Of a DNA stretch of 64,000 nt, positions 14,861 to 62,555 are shown piece by piece. Made by a program: the position numbers and the translations under genes. Numbering within the stretch: position 1 is the stretch's first letter; the number at the start of each line of letters is the position of its first letter. Source of the stretch: Datnioides undecimradiatus (taxonomy: Eukaryota > Chordata > Actinopteri > Lobotiformes > Datnioididae); the NCBI GenBank assembly GCA_008933995.1, contig WARS01000015.1:16004957-16068956 (forward strand), read 5' to 3'. The notes under the pieces were generated by a model. The model ran no database searches and was not told the origin of the DNA. It saw nothing but the letters and a program-made list of their open reading frames with translations.

Positions 14861-16140
14861 TTTTTCAGACTGGGATTATTGCTATGTCATCTTAAACTGA
14901 CTGGATGTTCAAAAAAAAAAAAAGGCTGTGCAAATACAAACTGGTTAAACCCTTCAAAGGATTTATATAAAATCCATATCTACTTAGCACCTTAGTTTCC
15001 TAGGGAATGTGTTGTCAGGGTGAAGAATAACAAGAGACAGACAAACAAATGGACAAAGATGCAGAAAGACAAACAGATTGGAGGCAAAGGGGAACTATAA
15101 CCTATTTCCCACAGTGCTCTCCTCCCCAGGGTCCTCTGCCTCCACACTGAGCTGAAACATCAGTTTCCAGAAGAAACTTTCTCATTCAGTTTTCTCAGGT
15201 TGCACTGATATGGTTTTTTTTCTTTACAACTTCAGATTTGTTGTACAATAATAGGCCGATGCTAAGAATCAGTACTGACTGTTAATATATTATTGCTTCC
15301 TTTTTTCTCACTTCACATTTTAATGTTGTGAATATGTGCCTAACCAAATTGTGAAAATGTTGGAAAAGTTGTTTTATGTTTGTGGAAAAAAAAAATCAGG
15401 GGGGACTTTGAGTTTGTTAAATTGGGTTTTCGGTCTTTCATTGAGCAACTCCGATGATGGTTAGCAGATGCAGTCAAAAAAACAAGTAGGACAAATTTCA
15501 GAAGAAGAAAGACAAGATGCCACAAATTGACATATTTAGATTTGTAGACTGAAAACTTGCTGTGTGAAAATGCCACCGCTCCATTCTGATCCTGCACACA
15601 AAGCAAAGTAACAAAGTAATGCAAGTCATTCAATACAGTCCACCAGACGGTAAGGGCATGACTCTCATGAAGCTGACACAGACAAGAGTCTATACCTCTC
15701 GTATAAAATATCATCATAAAAAAAGATAGAGACCTAGAATGGGTTTTGCCAGCCTCTAAACACTATTGCCTCCTGAAGATAACCTCCTATGATTTGTGCT
15801 TTGAGCTTCCTGGAATCTTAAATAGGGATACCATTTTTCCAAAAGACAATGCACGTCTTGATTGCTGCTCAGTCTCCACACCTGCAATCCATCTACTCAT
15901 CTTCTCTGCAGTATAGCAACCCTAGTCCTTTAGCCTTGGCGCCAGACTGTCGTGGATCACTACCTGCCAGCCCGGGGTCCCCATAGGAAAGCAGAGTATT
16001 CTGAATTTTTTAGTTCACGATCATTGTTACTATTGTTAGTAAAGGATGTGCTAGTTACTAGGGAAGGCAACAACACCCTAGACTCGAGAATCCAAAAGGA
16101 AGAGAGTAGCTGAAACAACACCCCACAGTTCTCAGGCTCT
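14861..16140. other. intergenic sequence left of the transposon remnants
   Basis: No gene, RNA or recognisable repeat was found apart from A/T runs. The promoter of adamtsl2 should lie near the left edge of this stretch if the 5'UTR exon call is right. Confidence 0.45.
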
Positions 16141-16150
16141 ATGATGGTGC

Positions 16151-16245
16151 ATTCCCGAGACCTTCTTAACTACTCCATCTTCGTGTATCTAGATGATATT
16201 TTGATCCTTTCCAGGAACATCAGGGATCCCATCCAACAATGTCTG
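16151..16245 (+). mobile_element. Ty3/gypsy-type reverse transcriptase fragment
   Basis: One short open stretch encodes DLLNYSIFVYLDDILILSRN. This contains the YLDD catalytic box of Ty3/gypsy reverse transcriptases with its usual flanks (a DLLN-type helix before and an ILIxSR motif after). No LTRs, integrase or gag were recognised around it, and the frame is lost on both sides, so it is a dead scrap of roughly 100 bases. Confidence 0.7.
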
Positions 16246-17105
16246 GGTCATTCCAGAATTGGAAGACAATTTAGGGATCAAAACTTTTGAAAAATCGACC
16301 CATTATTTTATAATTTTCTTTCACATATTTAAGAAAACCAGGTAATAAACCATCAAATAATTTGATTCGTCCAGCTCAAGCATCAAAGGTACACTTTTGA
16401 TGAGATGTTTTATTGGTTGTGCACTATGTTTCGTGCAACCCTGTTATGAAGACTCTTTCAGATAAAACTTGACATATTGATTTAAGAAACTTTTCAAATC
16501 TAGCTTGCCCAACTTTTCAATAGCCACATGCTTTTTTAAAACTAATTTCAGTATTAATTTTCAAATATTTGTTTAAAACCATTATGCATCAAATCATTAA
16601 AACTATTAAAAAGTCAAGAGGTCAAACCCTCATGAGTTTAGAAAATCATTTAATATTATTTTAGTAAAAATGATATGGTAACAGGGTTGAAATTACAGTA
16701 ACAGGGTTGTGCAAAGTAACAGGGTTGAATGGACACATTACTTTTGATTGTAGATCATAACATAAATGTGACAAATGAATACTCAGAACCACAGAAATGT
16801 TGTTTAATAACATCTTATGTCATATATCAACCTGCAATGCTTATGATTCAATGGTTTACATATTTGAAATATTAGGTTTCGCTGCTTTCTCTTTTATATA
16901 ACTGTAAACTATAACTAGCTGTAAATGTATAACATCTTACATAAACATGTCAACAAGACCACAAACTGGATCTGACCAAATATACAATAGGCAAAACATT
17001 AGGAAAAACAGTATTACAGTAGGCCGAGAACCTGGCTTTAAATTGAATGAAGATATCAAAAATAGTCATGAACTGATTAATACTTTAGAAACCTGATGTC
17101 CAGAT

Positions 17106-20100
17106 TTAATTTTCGTGGTTGGCCAAAGTATCCCATACCTCTCTTGCAATGGCCTTGTGGCGTGAGGTAACATTCTCTGGGGAAGGAATGAGGGTCAGCA
17201 TATCCTCGAAGGGATACCAACAGAGATCATCCCTCAATGGCCAGAAAAAAAGGATTTTCCCCCACTTTCTGCATACATTTCACCTGGCAGTGGGTCTCAT
17301 TCACCTCCTGGATGATGCCTGGATAGATTGTGTGATTGTACACCAGGGCACACCATTTCCCCACAGTGTCTGGACTGTGCCATTGCACTTCTTCTGGTGT
17401 GCTGTGTATGGGATCTTCTGTGTGGTTATGTATGGGATTAAAGCTGAAGCACTTTTTTGGCAGTCACACCCCAGATTCCCTGTTGCACAGCACATGCAGC
17501 TCATGTCACGGTAGAGAATCTTGCCAGGTGAAAGAGCGACCACCTGGTGGAGCCTCATCGTGGACAGTACGGCTGGAAGGTCAGCTGGCATTTCTTTCAT
17601 TGCATCCTCCACAGCTTGCTCCTGAATGTAAAACAATTTCACCTTCGATTGTCCCTCGCTCAGAGCTTGGTAAAGGGATAATGCAGTGGGGATATCAACC
17701 CCTTGGCTGACAAGCCTGTCGGCCCTCCTTTTCAATGTGCCACCCACGCCATCTGGGGCACCTTTGCCATGGCTAGCCTCGAAATAGTTCCAGGTTCCTC
17801 TTGTAAACCCCTTCTTGAAAATTTTAGTACAAAAGAGGTAAAAATTACCACGTTGCTTGTACTGTGTGCATGGACCATCACTAAAAAAATGTATGGCTAT
17901 CACATCGGGGCACCTCTCTCAGATTTCCTTCAGGATGGGCTCCAGGTGTTGCCATATGGCAGGTGGTCCCTTCAATCTGGATGCTGATACAGTGCAGAAG
18001 GAGGTAGGGGCAGATGCCCCCCCCAACCAGATAGTAAACCCCAGTGTATAAAGTGGCCTGTTGGTGTGATGCACCAAAATGTAAAGCTCGTATTTCAGCA
18101 CTGTGCTTGCAGCTGTAGTTTTCTGAGAAGTCAATATGGACTGCACATTCGTTTGCAGGGAGGTTCAGCTTCAACTTCTGGAGCAAAATGCTAAACGTTT
18201 CCACCAACTCTTGTTGAGAACATTCAAATTCTTTTTCCAAAGTGATCTTTGAGGCTACTCCAGGATCATTTTTGTGCTTTTTGTCCACAGTTGCCCACTA
18301 AAGGTAGATGATACTATCAGTGGCTTTGTAGTGGCTTGTGAGTGTATAGGTCTTATTGCTGCACTGCTCACATTCCTCATACATACATGTCAGCCATCAC
18401 ATGTGACATGACATTCTTGTCATGTCACATGTGATGGCTTGGGTCAGGCTCTCCAAATTGGATGTGTCGATGACATGCATCTGGTGAAGCTTTTTGGCAA
18501 TAAAACCTAGATTTTCATGCTGTTTGCACATGCATGTTTCTCAATCTGCCAATGTTGGATGCACAACCCAGTAGGGGCGAAGTGTGCAGAACAGTGAGTA
18601 TGATAGACAGAGGTTGGTCTGCTCAGCCAAGAACTTCACATGGAGGTTCTTCACTGAATCTACCAGTAATCTTTTCTGCATTTTCTTCTTTTCTTTTGTC
18701 ACTGTTTGCTTTTTTCCTGTTGTGATCCTGCTGACATCATCACGTAAAAAGAATGATCTCACTGTTGATCTCAGTGTCGCAGCAATCCCCCCATGTTTCT
18801 TCTTCTGGTACCTGCAGACATTTTTATTTCCAAGTTTTCTCCACCTTCTCCTTGAAAATCCAAAAACCTCCTCTGCCAATCTTTGTAGCCTGTACTTCTT
18901 CAGGATTTTGCTGGCGACTATTCCTGCAATTGCTTGTCTGTCACTCTCTCTCTTTGAAACTGCGTACTTGGTACGTACTTCTTCAGCTACTGCTGTGTGA
19001 AATAGCACGGTTCTTCTTAAGGATGTGCCCGAGATTTGCCGAATCAACTTGTTGACTTTGAATCTTGGAGGTGGATTGTCCTTTTTCAATCGATGGAGAC
19101 GCTTTCTGTATTTTTCTGCTCATTGTTCAACTTTCCTCAACTGATCCTGTAGTTTCTGCAACTCCCTATTTAATTTTGCTTTGGCAGCCCTCCTTTTTCT
19201 TCTGCCAAGATCATGTTGCCTAAAAGAAACATATAAACATATTGTCACTAAAACATTTCAATTGCTATAAATAGACATCACCAGCCATTAACTGTAACGA
19301 TATCAATACTTTCATATTTGATGTGTGCTTACACTAACTTGCATTCCTCAATAACTTAAACTGCTGTCCTGACCTTGAGGTCCCAGGCTAAGGGCTGACT
19401 GGAGATTCTAGGCTGACTGGAGGGGTGTTTAATCCTTCAAATACCCTTTTCCTGGCATTACACCTCTTATGACCCTCTCTCCACTTTTTTTGCTGGGCAC
19501 GCTGCTCTCTCAAACTGCAGCCGTTTTGCCTCTTTTTCTTCCCTGTTTCTACATCTTTCCTCCACTTCTCTCTCTCTTTTTCTAAGTACTGCTGTCTCCT
19601 CTGTTCATCAGCATCACGCCTGGCACGGTACTGTCTCTGCTTTCTAGCAGCAATCAGTGGTGTGCGAGAACTCTGTAAAAATCAGTCAAAGATTTTTAAA
19701 ATCTCTATTGTAAATAATCTGAACATGAACACTTAAAAACAGTTGAGGTCATGTTTAGTTAATAATCCCATCCATGTAGTTATTGCAACACTGACATACT
19801 TATGTTACCTGGTGGCAATAAAAGAAAAAAATGGCAATTTATGTTCTGGAAAATATGGCAATACATTTAAAACAAGTAAATTATGCTAAATTATATGTAC
19901 ACATTTGATTTTACTATAGATAATGGGCTGTCCCTTCTGAGTGAACTGTAATTACAGTTACAGGGTTGCAAGTAACAGCGTTGAAAATCAATGCTAATGC
20001 ACTAATGTTAGCTGTTTTTCAGAAATAGATGCTAGCTGGGGAATGTAATGTTACTGTTAGTGTCAAGGACAGACTTAGTTACATTAATAAATACATAAAA

Positions 20101-20230
20101 CTTTGAATTAAGTTGTCATATTCTGATAATATGACTAACAGGGTTGCGTTGGTTAGAGTGACACAATCAGTCAAGGCTGAAAAAATGGGAAAAATATGAA
20201 AAAGAGAGGACATACCTTTGGTCTACCCAT
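17106..20230 (-). pseudogene. decayed transposon-like gene of an unnamed fish family
   Basis: Reads on the minus strand as: mini-exon 20230-20216 (MGRPK, then gtatgt), exon 19672-19374 (basic, AARKQRQYRARRDADEQRR), then one long segment from 19219 to 17106. The long segment holds a coiled basic part, a Cys-rich part (CMCKQHEN, CEQC), a DDE-like core (HIDFSENY, FFSDGPCTQYK, EASHGKGAPDGVGG) and a C-terminal end (FFWPLRDDLCWYP). I recall this architecture from many uncharacterised, repeated fish and invertebrate proteins, but I cannot give a family name. The copy is dead. It has at least six in-frame stops, one inside a palindrome at 18392-18439. It also has frameshifts at the C run 18017-18024, between about 17340 and 17400, and at the A run 17245-17251. 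At least two stops look like CGA-to-TGA changes. The catalytic role is inference. Confidence 0.72.
18392..18439. repeat. perfect 22-bp palindrome with 4-base loop
   Basis: The arms 18392-18413 and 18418-18439 are exact reverse complements around the loop TTCT. It sits in the Cys-rich region of the decayed transposon gene and places a TGA in frame. The extra residues interrupt what should be a short DMT-to-CMYEEC spacing, so the second arm looks like a templated inverted duplication. Confidence 0.85.
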
Positions 20231-20334
20231 GGTGTTAGCATAGGGCTTGATGATGTCATTTCCTCTGTGTCACCTGACTCACTATTTTTCTTCTTGTTCT
20301 GCTGCAATGCTAAAAACGTTTCAGTAACAGTTGC

Positions 20335-23300
20335 GCACATGTTGTGGGACACAACTTCAGTACATCATTACTATTATTTAAAATATGTTGATAATTACAC
20401 TAATTGTTTTAACAATTACAAGAGACACATATCAACAAAATTATACAAAAAAAAGTGTATTTCAAACTTATTTTAATGGTTATATTTGGCATGTAAGTTT
20501 GTCATCAAAGAAGGTGGGACAAGAGAAAAATGCCAGTTTAGGGGGTGCTGGAGATCTGTTTAGTATTTTTAATAATATTTTGAAACATATTTTCCTACAA
20601 TCATATTCACATTTTGCTTCAGCACAAGAACAATTTACACAACAAGTGCATGTCTTAGTGTTTTGTGCTTGGATTGTTTGATTTTTTTGGGTGGGACAGA
20701 AAATGTCCTCCAGTTCTGGAATGTCCCGTCTGCTAAATGCTGCAAAGGCCTTTTGAGAGTAATCTGTTCATTTAGGCTGAAAAGTGTGAGTTCTAAGTGA
20801 GTTCTGTCAGCCACCTGAGTTGCATCATTAAAGGCAGGGAGGTAAAGACAAATCCTGAAACGATTCAAGATGTTGCAAAGCAGCTGAATCCAACCCCTGT
20901 GGAGCAGCTACAGTGGTCCCTTGTCCCTTTTCCAACTTGACGCTTCATTTGTGACTACAGTTGAGTTGTTGCACCACCTACCTAACATCTGCTATCCCCT
21001 TCACTTTTCCTTCACTGCCTTTGCTAAATTACAGAGATGCGTCACCTCTGCTACAGTATTGGTCCAGCCCTCTTGCCTTCTTATTTTGGAGATGGATGCT
21101 TCTGTCACTAGCCTCGGGACCTTTTCTGGTTCAGAAAAGGAACATTTACTGTTCAGGGACCTTTTCTTTTAAGATGTGAGTTTGCATTTGAACTAGACAT
21201 GGAGACGTGGAGACATTACTTACTGGATAAGAGTTACAGGCCATTATGTAACAGCTTGCACTACCTTGTCTACAATCCTGACATTTTCACAGTGTCACTG
21301 TGGACCTCAAATATCAGCAGAGTTCAAACATCAAGACCCATGTAAAACTCAACCTTCATGATGTGGATCATACTATGACAGGACCTGGTGTTACTATACT
21401 ATGACCTGGTCTTGAGAACATGGTAAAGTTTTGCATTCAAAACTGCTTTTAACTGTTCAGGTCAATTACTCCTTTTATGTGATGGTGACCTGGGATTCCT
21501 CCCTGTCTGTAACACTGAGAAAGACAGAGAAAGCCAGAAACAGATGGAAGGACAACAGTTCAGGCAGAGGAATGACAGGCAAGGAGAAAAGAGTGATGAG
21601 ATGAGAGGAGGACGAGCAGACGTCTGAGGACCACCATGTCTGCCCACCATGTCGTCTTCCCCTCTTTTTGCTCATCTGTCTGTCTCCCTCCCTCTGACTT
21701 TATTACAATTTCTCCTCTTCTCGCTCTTGTTTTTCTCTCTTTTTCTGCTGTTTTTTCTCACCCCTCCCTCTCCTCCTCTATGTATGTTTCGCCCTCTCCT
21801 CTCTCAGTCACACTCCTTTCTTCACTACTCTGTTTCTACAGCTGTTTCTTTGCAGCTTTGCACTTGCTCTCTCAATTACTCTCTTTTCCCTTTCTTGATC
21901 TCCCATTCAGTTCTGTTCATGTATACTGCTAAGTTCATAATCACACAGATTTTGTGTGTTATGTGACTTTGATGATTTGGCAACACATCTGGTTACTAGT
22001 GCATTTTAATAATCCAGGTCATGGAATTTTAATGGAAATGACACCACTGGTGTTGGCAAATATGCCTTGAGCAGCTACTCCTGTCAGAAATCTTTGATCT
22101 CTTAGACTCTCATTCTTTATCCCTTCATGGTCTCTTATCCTTTTCAATCCATTTCTCTCCTTTGTCTGCTGCTAGTGTGTCTGTTGGCAACGTTAGCAGT
22201 CGCTTTGCTCCATCACTAGATTCATAAGCAGATAGACAAAGTTCAAGGAGGCTGCCAGACATGAGGAATAAGCCCCACCCACCATTGCCACCAATTAAAG
22301 CCCACCACCCTCCACACGACACAAAAACAAAAGCTACAGAGAAGCCATGTTCCATGAAGGCTTACAACGCTCCCATGGGTGTGTTTTTGTGTGTGCCCAT
22401 TTGCAGCATGCCAAACAAAGTCTGGAGTCATTAGGGTTGGCACATGCAGACAAAAGACCAATTAAAGGCGTTATAAACACAACCACAGCAAGAGGGAAAA
22501 ATGAAATAAAAAAAGCACTCCAAGTCACTCTAAAATGTGTGAAGCAAAAAGTACTTCTTCCTGAAAACACTTGGATGGAAAAATAGATTTAAAAATACAT
22601 AAAGACAGAAGTAAACTTGGAAGTTCAGTGTGTTCATTGCAGTAAAAGGAGTGTCATTAGTTTTTCTCTCTCTCTAATGGAGTACAAACAACAGCAAAAA
22701 TACCCGAATATAAACACCAGCACATCATCACAGGTAAAAACCGCATCTATTTGAACACTATATGTACTATATTTTACACTATATTTTAAATGGAAATTTC
22801 AGTATTAATAAACCCAGACAGTATTTTCTCATGTTGTCATGTCTGAATGACATCTAGGGACAACAAGTTTTGAAATCAGTCCAGTGTAGAACAAGTTGTC
22901 AGATGAAAAACTACAATGTATGGCAATTTATGTAAACTAGTGCAATCACACCCTGTCAATGTCCACTTTTTGCCACTGACAGGCTCAGATTGTTGTTAAA
23001 ATTGTCTGGCAACATTATGGAACAGAGAACTCTCTGAAATCTAGTAACAGTGTTTAGAGGAGAGAGGAGCGCTGTGAGTTTGTTGTTTGGAAGGACAGAA
23101 ATTGGCACTTAGTGTTCTCTAAAAGATTAGAAACAACAGTTCATAGCTGTACATTTCTGAACTGTGGCTACAAAATGTTACACAACACTTTGATCAAGTT
23201 TCATAGGTTGCCTTTGTCAGGTAAGCACATGCTGAAATTGTGGCTTGTTGTGCTACAAATGGATGCTAACACTGCTCTGATCAATCATTTTAACCAGGAT

Positions 23301-51649: not shown

Positions 51650-52750
51650 GCTTATATCTCACCATAGAAGCAGGTCTTGTAGATATATGAAGAAGCAAGT
51701 TCCCAAGAAGTAGAGACTTCACTTTCTATTCAAGCAAACATGCATTTTATTCAAGGATGGGCTATTCTGTTACTCCCAAAGTGGAATTACATTGGATAGT
51801 GAACATTGAGATACTACCTATTACTAGCTCTGATCATGCCCCTATTGCCTCTATGAAGTGGGACATAGGATAAAGACCAGTCTCCAAATAGTGGAGACTC
51901 AGTGCATCCCTTCTGAATGATGAAGACTTTGGTTCTTTCACCAGAGCTGAACTTTAAGACATTAATGCCAAAGCATACATCAGAGGCCACATTATTTAAT
52001 GCCACATTATTTAATTTGCAAGTGCTAAGAAAAGGAAGAGGGAAGCTAAACAAAAAGAATTGCAGGACAAAATAAGAGAATACAAACATAAACAATCTAC
52101 ATCTACAAATCATGTAAAACTTTAAACCCATCTCACATGGAGCTTAATAGTTTACTATCAGGGAAGATCGAGGGAACCTTAAGATTTACTACACAAAGAT
52201 ACTTTGAATATGGAAACAGATTGAGCAGATTACTAGCATTCAGACTGCGATCATCAAATATAGTACAGAGACTAAAATCACAAGAGACTTTTGTTACAAA
52301 AGTAGATAAGAGAGTGGAATGTTTTACAGTTACAATGTTTTACAATGCGTTATATAAGAAAACAGATACTTGTTCTGCAAAAATAGCAGAATTTCTAAAT
52401 CGCATCAAACTATTGGAACTGAGAGAATCAGCAGCAAAGGAACTAGATGAGCCAGTTGAGGAATGCAAGATCAAGCATGTGATTTCTGCACTCAGAAACA
52501 ATAAAAGTCCAGGGCCAGATGGATATTTTACCAAATTCTACAAAACATTCAAAGACTTGCTGTCTCTCCTACTATTAAAAGCATACCGTTAGCATTCAAT
52601 CAAAACATTATCGCACCATCTTTGACAGAAGCAAATATAAAAGAAATAATCATAAATCTGCACCAGTAGAAACATATTGTCTAGTTGATGTGTAATAAGT
52701 AAAAACTTTATGTTAAACCATCAGATTACAGACTACATGCCAAGTACATG
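51650..52750 (+). mobile_element. broken L1-type LINE ORF2 fragment
   Basis: Plus-strand translation in several frames shows the C-terminal end of an L1 endonuclease (FPRSRDFTFYSSKHAFYSR, LPITSSDHAPIAS), the linker (KAYIRGHII) and the start of the reverse transcriptase (NNKSPGPDGYFTKFYK). One frame is open for 151 codons (52137-52592). Stops and frameshifts elsewhere, and loss of the catalytic RT boxes, show it is dead. Weak LINE-like residues may continue to about 52750. The remainder up to 53600 is AT-rich and unassigned. Confidence 0.82.
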
Positions 52751-60100: not shown

Positions 60101-62555
60101 TGACACATTCAGTGATGTATTTGATCCATATTTCTGTTGGTTTATACTTTTTTTTTTTTTTCTGAACTCTGTCTTCGAAAGCCGACAAAACAGTTTCTGA
60201 GACGTTGTATCGTGTCGTCTTGCAGAATCTTCTGAAGAAGCAGGTGGAGACGAGAACGGCAGACGGCAGGAGGCGGATCACGCCACTCTGTATTGCTCAG
60301 CTGGACACGGGGTAAGAAGGCATGAAGGACACACTGGACAGAAGAAACTCTTAGTTTAAGAGATGACTAACATCAGACCACGATACAAACTGATCTTAGA
60401 GTCCAAAGACAGTGGCTGGAATATTTATTTCTTGTAAAAGTGCCTTTAATTGTATAAAAACTGAAACAAAACATTCAAAACTTAGATCACAAGCTGAGCA
60501 TCTTAGATTAAAAACTGTGGGTGAAGTCTAAGTTGCATCTTTGTGGTACGGCTGTCACTTACTCCACTGACCGCCTAACCTAACAATTGTGCGACACACA
60601 AAACTTATCTGGAAAGTCATCTTTGGAGGAAGGACAGGCCCTTTTCAACAATACATGGCAGGTGATTGGAGGAACCTTCTGTATATTACCGCCAGTCGAG
60701 GGCTAAGGTCAACCCATCAGATCGTAATGTGACTCAGTAAGAGACCACTCACGAAAGTCCATTAGGAGAAGCACAAAATCATCGTTCTCCATTAGGGAAA
60801 GTCCTTCAGTGCTGTTTTTTGCTCTTCTGTCAATGAAGAATCACTCTCGCTCTCTCTGATAGAGACGATGCTCTAGCAGCATCTGAATGACCTTCTGTAG
60901 AAGCTGCCATTGTTGTTTTCAAATTAAAACTTGATTATTATTTTTTTCCTGTCGTCACACTTAAACCACACCTGTAGCTGCCAGTTAGTCCCCCGTAGAA
61001 CGCTGAGTGGTTTTGTAGTCTGGAAAGATGATTTTCAGCTTGCGTTCTGCTGAACCCATGAACCAGTCGTAGCTCAAGGTGCTTCTTTCTCTGCAGGGAT
61101 TTCTCCCCGGCTCTGTTCAACAGCGCTCCCATCCTGCCTTCGGGATCCTCCATGTCCAACCAGCTCACCTCTCAGCTCAGCTCTGACTCCAGCCCGGGAC
61201 AAGCCTCCTCTCTGGGGCTCAGGCCCAGCCATGACCCCATGCTCACCTCGCCTCCGCCCAGCAACGCAGCAAAGGCCCTGGAGGACAACAAGGACAGGTA
61301 CGAGTTCCTTTTGTCTGCTTCTGAGATGTTCTGTCTGTGGATGTTTACGTCTTCTTGTCCTCACTCCATCCTCCTCTTCTTCTGGTTTCATGATGTTTCA
61401 GTGTGAAGCCGTGCCTGCTGCTTACTTCCGCCTCCAAGATCGAGCCAATGAAAGCCCTGGACTCCAGGTTCACAGAAAGGTCAAAGGCCACGCCAGGGGT
61501 CACCGCTGCTATCTCCTCGACTGCAGGACTCACGCCTCTAGACAGGTGATTGGCTACTTGAGTGAAGTAGAAAAGCACTGTGAGGTGGATCGAAGGTCAA
61601 AGAGAACATACGTTGACTCGTTGTGTTCTTCCACCAGGCCGAAAGACGGCATCTCCGCCCTGAAAGACATAAAGTCCAAAGAAGACACCAGCAGCGACAG
61701 CGAGGACAAGATGGCCGTCATCAACAAAAACCTGTCGTTCAGCAAGAGGAAACCCGACCTGCTGATGGATGGAGGAGAGGTGCCCGAGAAGAGGAAGAAG
61801 GGCCGGCCCAGGAAAGACAAGATAGCCACTCCCATCGCCCAGCCCTTCGCTCAGGTAGAGAGAAGAAGGCAAAAGATGAACTAGTAGATGAATCTGGTGA
61901 ATTCAACAGATCCGTTTATTAATTTAAAAAATAAAAACATGAATCAACCAAAAAGGACGAATATATTTAGATCACGGAGAGGTGTAAGTCGGTTAAAGAT
62001 CAGGAAAATCTGGTGTAAAACACAACGTGAGGCGGAGTGAAAGCTTTTGTTGTTCGTGCGTCTTTGGAGCAGTCGTATGGAGATAAAAGAGTGCTTTGTC
62101 CCTCCTCTTCCTGTCAGATAAGTCCTCCAGCAGAGCGGGAGCCCAGCAGGGTGGCAGCTCCTCCAGCTGCTGTAGCTGCTCTCACACTACCAACACCGAG
62201 TATAAAGAAGGCCTTCAGTCTGCAGGTAACACGCCGGGACTCTGACTCGTTAAAGACTCCTTTCGTTTGCCCAGCTTTGTTTTTTCTGCTGCGTCATAAC
62301 TGACATCACGAACAGCATCCCAGCCACGCCGTAAAACAGAGTTACAGTAGGGAGTAACGTGAATGCCGGGTGTTCACGTTTACATTGGAGACCAAAGTCA
62401 GATATAAAAGACTGACTGTGACAAATTATATTAAAAGTCAACAGTTTCAAATTCAGTTTCTGCCAGTCCTCCATAACATCACCCCGTCCCTAGCAGTCTT
62501 CTGTGAATTCGTTGACCCGGTTTTTGACCTCATTATTATTGTGTGTGCTTGCCTG

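What the first reader, a model, noticed from the sequence alone, without database searches (positions are those of the whole stretch)
16435..20334. Dead copy of an apparently unnamed DNA-transposon-like gene
The gene begins with a five-codon exon (MGRPK), then a basic region, a Cys-rich part, a core with three acidic landmarks (HIDFSENY, SDGPCTQYK, GKGAPDGVGG) and a distinctive C-terminus (FFWPLRDDLCWYP). The order and spacing suggest a DDE-type nuclease, and I recall similar uncharacterised proteins repeated across fish genomes. I cannot place it in a named superfamily. Six stops and three frameshifts show this copy is dead, but the family may be an undescribed mobile element.
Basis: partly seen in the sequence, partly recalled or inferred. 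Interest (0 to 1): 0.75.

Follow-up and report, generated by a model that had tools for sequence, protein, structure and literature searches.

The report
Dead Sola-like fish DNA transposon

Summary
The gene is part of a complete but dead DNA transposon of 4,483 bp (16245-20727, gene on the minus strand). It has 28-bp terminal inverted repeats (24 of 28 matching) flanked directly by a 4-bp duplication, GTCT. It sits in a reverse-transcriptase relic: joining the flanks turns a marginal RVT_1 match into one that crosses the junction. The five exact AACAGGGTTG repeats of the window all lie inside the element.

Listed relatives are in fish, molluscs, butterflies and moths, a beetle and a leafhopper. 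Two models show an RNase H fold. Three aspartates are nearly invariant (206/207, 204/204, 203/203), so the triad is DDD, not DDE.

In a published description, Sola transposons have a DDD transposase, a 4-bp TSD, mostly 2-9 kb and TIRs of 11-1124 bp. This element fits all four, but no Sola transposase could be compared. I file it provisionally as Sola-like; a separate superfamily is not excluded. No second genomic copy could be aligned, because the genome search did not complete.

The parts
16245..20727 (-). complete dead DNA transposon, 4,483 bp; transposase gene on the minus strand
   Evidence: TIRs, flanking TSD and interrupted reverse transcriptase
16245..16272 (+). terminal inverted repeat, low-coordinate end
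   Evidence: 24 of 28 identical to the reverse complement of 20700-20727; score 36 reached by 1 of 600 microsatellite-masked control pairs and 4 of 172 unmasked
20700..20727 (-). terminal inverted repeat, high-coordinate end (transposase 5' side)
   Evidence: as above
16241..16244 (.). target-site duplication GTCT
   Evidence: identical 4 bp directly outside both TIRs
20728..20731 (.). target-site duplication GTCT, second copy
20216..20230 (-). transposase exon 1, MGRPK
   Evidence: GT donor follows; P0005 carries MGRPK before the exon-2 sequence, 1 of 314 listed proteins
19374..19672 (-). transposase exon 2, basic helical N-terminal region; one stop
   Evidence: tblastn with P0003, P0005, P0012; AG/GT borders
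17106..19219 (-). transposase exon 3: coiled region, Cys-rich region, RNase H core, C-terminal barrel; five in-path stops, three frame changes
   Evidence: tblastn with P0001
18130..18132 (-). codon of first catalytic Asp (HIDFSENY)
   Evidence: D in 206 of 207 aligned relatives
17877..17879 (-). codon of second catalytic Asp (SDGPCTQY)
   Evidence: D in 204 of 204
17751..17753 (-). codon of proposed third catalytic Asp (HGKGAPDG)
   Evidence: D in 203 of 203; fourth residue of the helix after strand 5 in the model
16436..16445 (-). subterminal repeat AACAGGGTTG
   Evidence: 5 exact copies in 64 kb, all inside the element
16680..16727 (+). three more AACAGGGTTG copies (16680, 16700, 16718)
   Evidence: part of a 42-bp direct repeat of 19947-19985
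20137..20146 (+). fifth AACAGGGTTG copy
16129..16244 (+). left half of the interrupted reverse-transcriptase relic (FVYLDDILI)
   Evidence: RVT_1 positions 138-168, E 0.039 alone, below Pfam's cut-off
20728..20931 (+). right half of the reverse-transcriptase relic
   Evidence: no match alone; joined with the left half RVT_1 139-202, E 6.9e-6

Best explanation
A dead autonomous cut-and-paste DNA transposon. Its three-exon gene encoded a transposase of roughly 800 residues (relatives P0003, P0005 and P0012 are 818, 883 and 803 aa): a basic helical N-terminal part and long helix (inferred DNA binding and oligomer contact), a Cys/His-rich module (inferred zinc site), an RNase H-fold nuclease with three metal-binding aspartates (D483, D566, D608 in P0003 numbering) and a small C-terminal beta barrel. 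It would bind the subterminal AACAGGGTTG repeats and 28-bp TIRs, cut the element out, and join it to a target with 4-bp staggered cuts, leaving the GTCT duplication. Shown: gene, ends, TSD, target, fold by model, invariant triad. Inferred: each catalytic and binding step. Provisional placement: Sola-like (about 0.55).
Confidence: 0.86

Rival explanations
1. It is a member of the named Sola superfamily (Sola1, 2 or 3), only unlabelled in protein databases.
For: DDD triad, 4-bp TSD, 4.48 kb, 28-bp TIR all fall in the published ranges (PMC10741241 passage); Sola is reported in zebrafish, medaka and stickleback (PMC4746887 passages) and in bivalves (PMC10294476 passages), groups of animals (teleosts, bivalves) where this family also occurs.
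Against: Sequence similarity to any Sola transposase not tested; TSD GTCT unlike the AT-rich ones of dictyostelid Sola2; PMC10294476 found Sola only in bivalves among the molluscs it studied, whereas this family is also in a chiton and a limpet; no relatives in the prokaryote contigs.
Confidence: 0.55
2. It is a separate, so far unnamed superfamily of DDD transposons, distinguished by DD41D spacing and an ExxH motif before the last Asp.
For: No Pfam transposase family matched any of 38 members at E <= 0.1; [quoted passage not shown] broad animal range.
Against: Pfam does not cover all named superfamilies (recalled), so absence there says little; the tested structural features fit Sola.
Confidence: 0.3
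3. It is a relic of a domesticated host gene derived from a transposase, not a transposon copy.
For: Three-exon gene with usable splice borders.
Against: Lies between TIRs and a TSD inside a reverse-transcriptase relic; several divergent proteins per species and a tree unlike the hosts'.
Confidence: 0.03
4. The gene was carried inside the retroelement whose reverse transcriptase flanks it, rather than inserted by itself.
For: Reverse-transcriptase sequence lies on both sides.
Against: The RT domain is interrupted in its middle, and its match runs on when TIR-to-TIR plus one GTCT is left out, apart from a frame change near the junction.
Confidence: 0.02

Closest known systems
Sola superfamily (Sola1/2/3) of DNA transposons
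   Same: DDD transposase, 4-bp TSD, size mostly 2-9 kb, TIR 11-1124 bp as published; reported in teleosts and bivalves
   Different: Sequence relation untested; TSD GTCT rather than the AT-rich Sola2 sites of dictyostelids; no relatives in the prokaryote contigs
Retroviral integrases and IstA
   Different: No integrase family in Pfam matches; D-D-D with spacings near 82 and 41 instead of the integrase DDE (recalled)
Tc1/mariner (Mos1)
   Different: TA duplication there, GTCT here; no Pfam match
hAT, P, MuDR, Kolobok, Dada group
   Same: A conserved xxxH motif at the end of strand 5
   Different: ExxH instead of C/DxxH; last catalytic residue Asp; TSD 4 bp and not TTAA

Membership tests
Sola | DDD catalytic triad | tested here: met
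   D in 206/207, 204/204, 203/203 at the three fold-consistent positions; third residue assigned by topology, not by experiment
Sola | 4-bp target-site duplication | tested here: met
   GTCT at 16241-16244 and 20728-20731; one site only
Sola | length mostly 2-9 kb, TIR 11-1124 bp | tested here: met
   4,483 bp and 28 bp against PMC10741241
Sola | significant sequence similarity to Sola1/2/3 transposases | not testable with these tools
   no Sola sequence held; the two source papers looked up are not held
Kolobok | TTAA duplication | tested here: not met
   GTCT; TTAA rule from PMC9587614
hAT / P / MuDR / Kolobok / Dada | C/DxxH motif between second D and last E | tested here: not met
   ExxH: E 196/203, H 203/203; motif from PMC9587614
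Tc1/mariner | 2-bp TA duplication | tested here: not met
   GTCT; TA rule from PMC10741241
Ginger / Gypsy integrase | integrase recognisable by sequence | tested here: not met
   no integrase family among the 16 Pfam families matched at E <= 0.1 by any of 38 members; fold similarity alone exists
Any Pfam transposase family | significant match | tested here: not met
   0 families for three of four window pieces and one chance match (E 0.052) for the fourth; of 38 members, no family matched more than 2, best E 0.0026, none of the 16 named as a transposase
RNase H-fold polynucleotidyl transferases | strand-strand-strand-helix-strand-helix-strand-helix core with acids at strands 1, 4 and the last helix | tested here: met
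   models and VIA-align; Foldseek itself gave nothing at E <= 0.001

The most novel reading that the evidence does not exclude
The family is a superfamily of animal DNA transposons not in the current Repbase list: DD41D transposases with an ExxH motif, a seven-Cys/His module and AACAGGGTTG-type subterminal repeats, spread over fish, molluscs and insects mostly under the label 'uncharacterized protein'.
Probability: 0.28. Interest if true: 0.65.

Novelty: new member of a known kind. Interest (0 to 1): 0.4.

Why it matters
The three searches list over 300 proteins of this one transposase family, and most of those with a name are called uncharacterized, hypothetical or unnamed; a fold, a catalytic triad and one set of ends give a way to recognise and mask them. 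If the family proves to lie outside Sola, it is a new transposase superfamily with long, apparently intact predicted proteins in fish, molluscs and insects, open to a direct transposition assay.

Tried and rejected
E599 was considered as the third acid (DD32E) and rejected: E in 196 of 203, replaced in beetle P0201, and at the end of strand 5, whereas D608 is 203 of 203 and in the helix. PDB sequence search with the profile gave only chance-like matches, best E 0.028; PHROGs gave nothing under E 0.2; BFVD gave nothing at E <= 0.001. Viral and prokaryote contigs: 53 and 71 pattern stretches, none a relative by tblastn. No second copy of the element in the rest of the window. Ten paper searches: no listed title or abstract start describes this family; only free-licence PubMed Central papers are searched, and in the HGKG search the 10 listed of 9,134 papers had no HGKG. 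Papers seen as passages only: PMC10294476, PMC3627910, PMC5753468, PMC4455052, PMC5199201, PMC4746887, PMC9587614, PMC3706591, PMC10741241. Rows dropped before counts: P0008 and P0092 (chimeric predictions) from the 210 proteins; 64 of 314 proteins lacking one of the motif patterns. One search used 58 of the 314 proteins, chosen by named species, plus P0001 and the window; P0008, P0092, P0103 and the MAG-labelled ones were left out. Alignment A1 used 93 of the 120 proteins then listed, A2 38. Of the 297, 181 and 154 hits in the three protein searches only the best 120 each were listed, so the species range is a lower bound.

Full report
On the minus strand the gene has exon 1 at 20230-20216 (MGRPK, followed by a GT donor), exon 2 at 19672-19374 and exon 3 at 19219-17106, with AG/GT borders chosen by eye to fit relatives. 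Aligned with relatives P0001 and P0005, the coding path holds six stops and three frame changes, plus a 17-codon deletion and a 7-codon insertion. Two further stops, at 17303 and 17282, lie in a frame that the coding path leaves in that stretch and are not counted. MGRPK itself was found in 1 of 314 listed proteins, P0005.

Relatives. A read-through with X at stops found 297 proteins at E <= 0.01, of which 120 are listed: fish including a sturgeon, a chiton, a scallop and many unnamed metagenome or Logan contigs. A profile of 34 of them added bivalves, a limpet, butterflies and a beetle (181 hits, 120 listed). A beetle member added several moths and a leafhopper (154 hits, 120 listed). A few hits are labelled as bacterial MAGs (Sedimenticola, Thiodiazotropha); I infer host contamination. 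No relative was found in the viral or the prokaryote contigs. Several species hold divergent proteins (Merluccius, Gymnodraco, Mya, Patella, Brassicogethes), and in a 60-sequence tree fish fall in two places and insects in several, with the window copy next to Gadus and P0001 at support 1.0. The two-place pattern was read from a midpoint-rooted tree and that branching was not tested. I read this as the pattern of mobile DNA rather than of one orthologous gene.

Ends. A 28-bp inverted repeat joins 16245-16272 and 20700-20727, 24 of 28 matching. In controls 4 of 172 random pairs scored as high unmasked and 1 of 600 after masking microsatellites, so the repeat alone is good but not decisive. Directly outside it both flanks read GTCT. 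The left flank encodes ...FVYLDDILI... of a reverse transcriptase (RVT_1 positions 138-168, E 0.039) and the right flank alone matches nothing; joined, with XX over the junction, the match runs from 139 to 202 at E 6.9e-6, 26.3 bits, still under Pfam's cut-off of 29.6. The two pieces are in different frames of the joined DNA, so the relic has a frame change near the junction as well as stops. I conclude that the element entered an existing reverse-transcriptase sequence at this point. Calling that sequence Ty3/gypsy rests on my recall of the consensus. All five exact AACAGGGTTG in 64,000 bases lie within the 4,483-bp element, and a 42-bp direct repeat links the two subterminal regions. With one mismatch allowed the motif is not above chance in the window as a whole (9 found, 6.4 expected).

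Placement. The published description of Sola is a DDD transposase, 4-bp duplications, mostly 2-9 kb, TIRs of 11-1124 bp (PMC10741241, passage). This element meets all four. Sola is reported in three of four teleosts in PMC4746887 (passages) and in bivalves in PMC10294476 (passages). Against it, the latter paper found Sola only in bivalves among its molluscs, Sola2 of dictyostelids duplicates AT-rich 4-mers (PMC3627910, passage), and no Sola sequence could be compared. [quoted passage not shown] I therefore file it as Sola-like by structure, with membership open, and keep a separate superfamily at about 0.3.

Limits. Only one genomic copy with flanks was available; the genome search did not answer in 16 tries.

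Noticed in passing
18392-18439: A 48-bp near-perfect palindrome (92%) inside exon 3 coincides with a 7-codon insertion and one stop, absent in P0001 and P0005; possibly a small insertion or templated repair scar.
   Followed up: partly
16129-16244 and 20728-20931: Reverse-transcriptase relic, Ty3/gypsy-like by recall, that is older than the transposon and was its target.
   Followed up: yes
P0008 (Merluccius polli): Predicted protein with a relative of this transposase between pieces of a P-element-like gene (TNP-like_GBD, E 1.3e-14), perhaps an insertion into a P element.
   Followed up: no
P0163, P0164, P0171, P0293: Proteins of this family listed under bacterial MAGs (Sedimenticola, Ca. Thiodiazotropha); probably contamination with host DNA.
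   Followed up: no
52092-52592: ORF with NNKSPGPDGYFTKFYKTF, recalled as typical of LINE reverse transcriptases; no Pfam match at E <= 0.01.
   Followed up: partly
2321-2857: Cys-rich ORF that recalls part of an ADAMTS protease; Pfam gives only a sub-threshold match to another family.
   Followed up: partly
61054-61884: ORF ending with a GRPRK stretch, perhaps a host nuclear protein exon; no Pfam match at E <= 0.01.
   Followed up: partly
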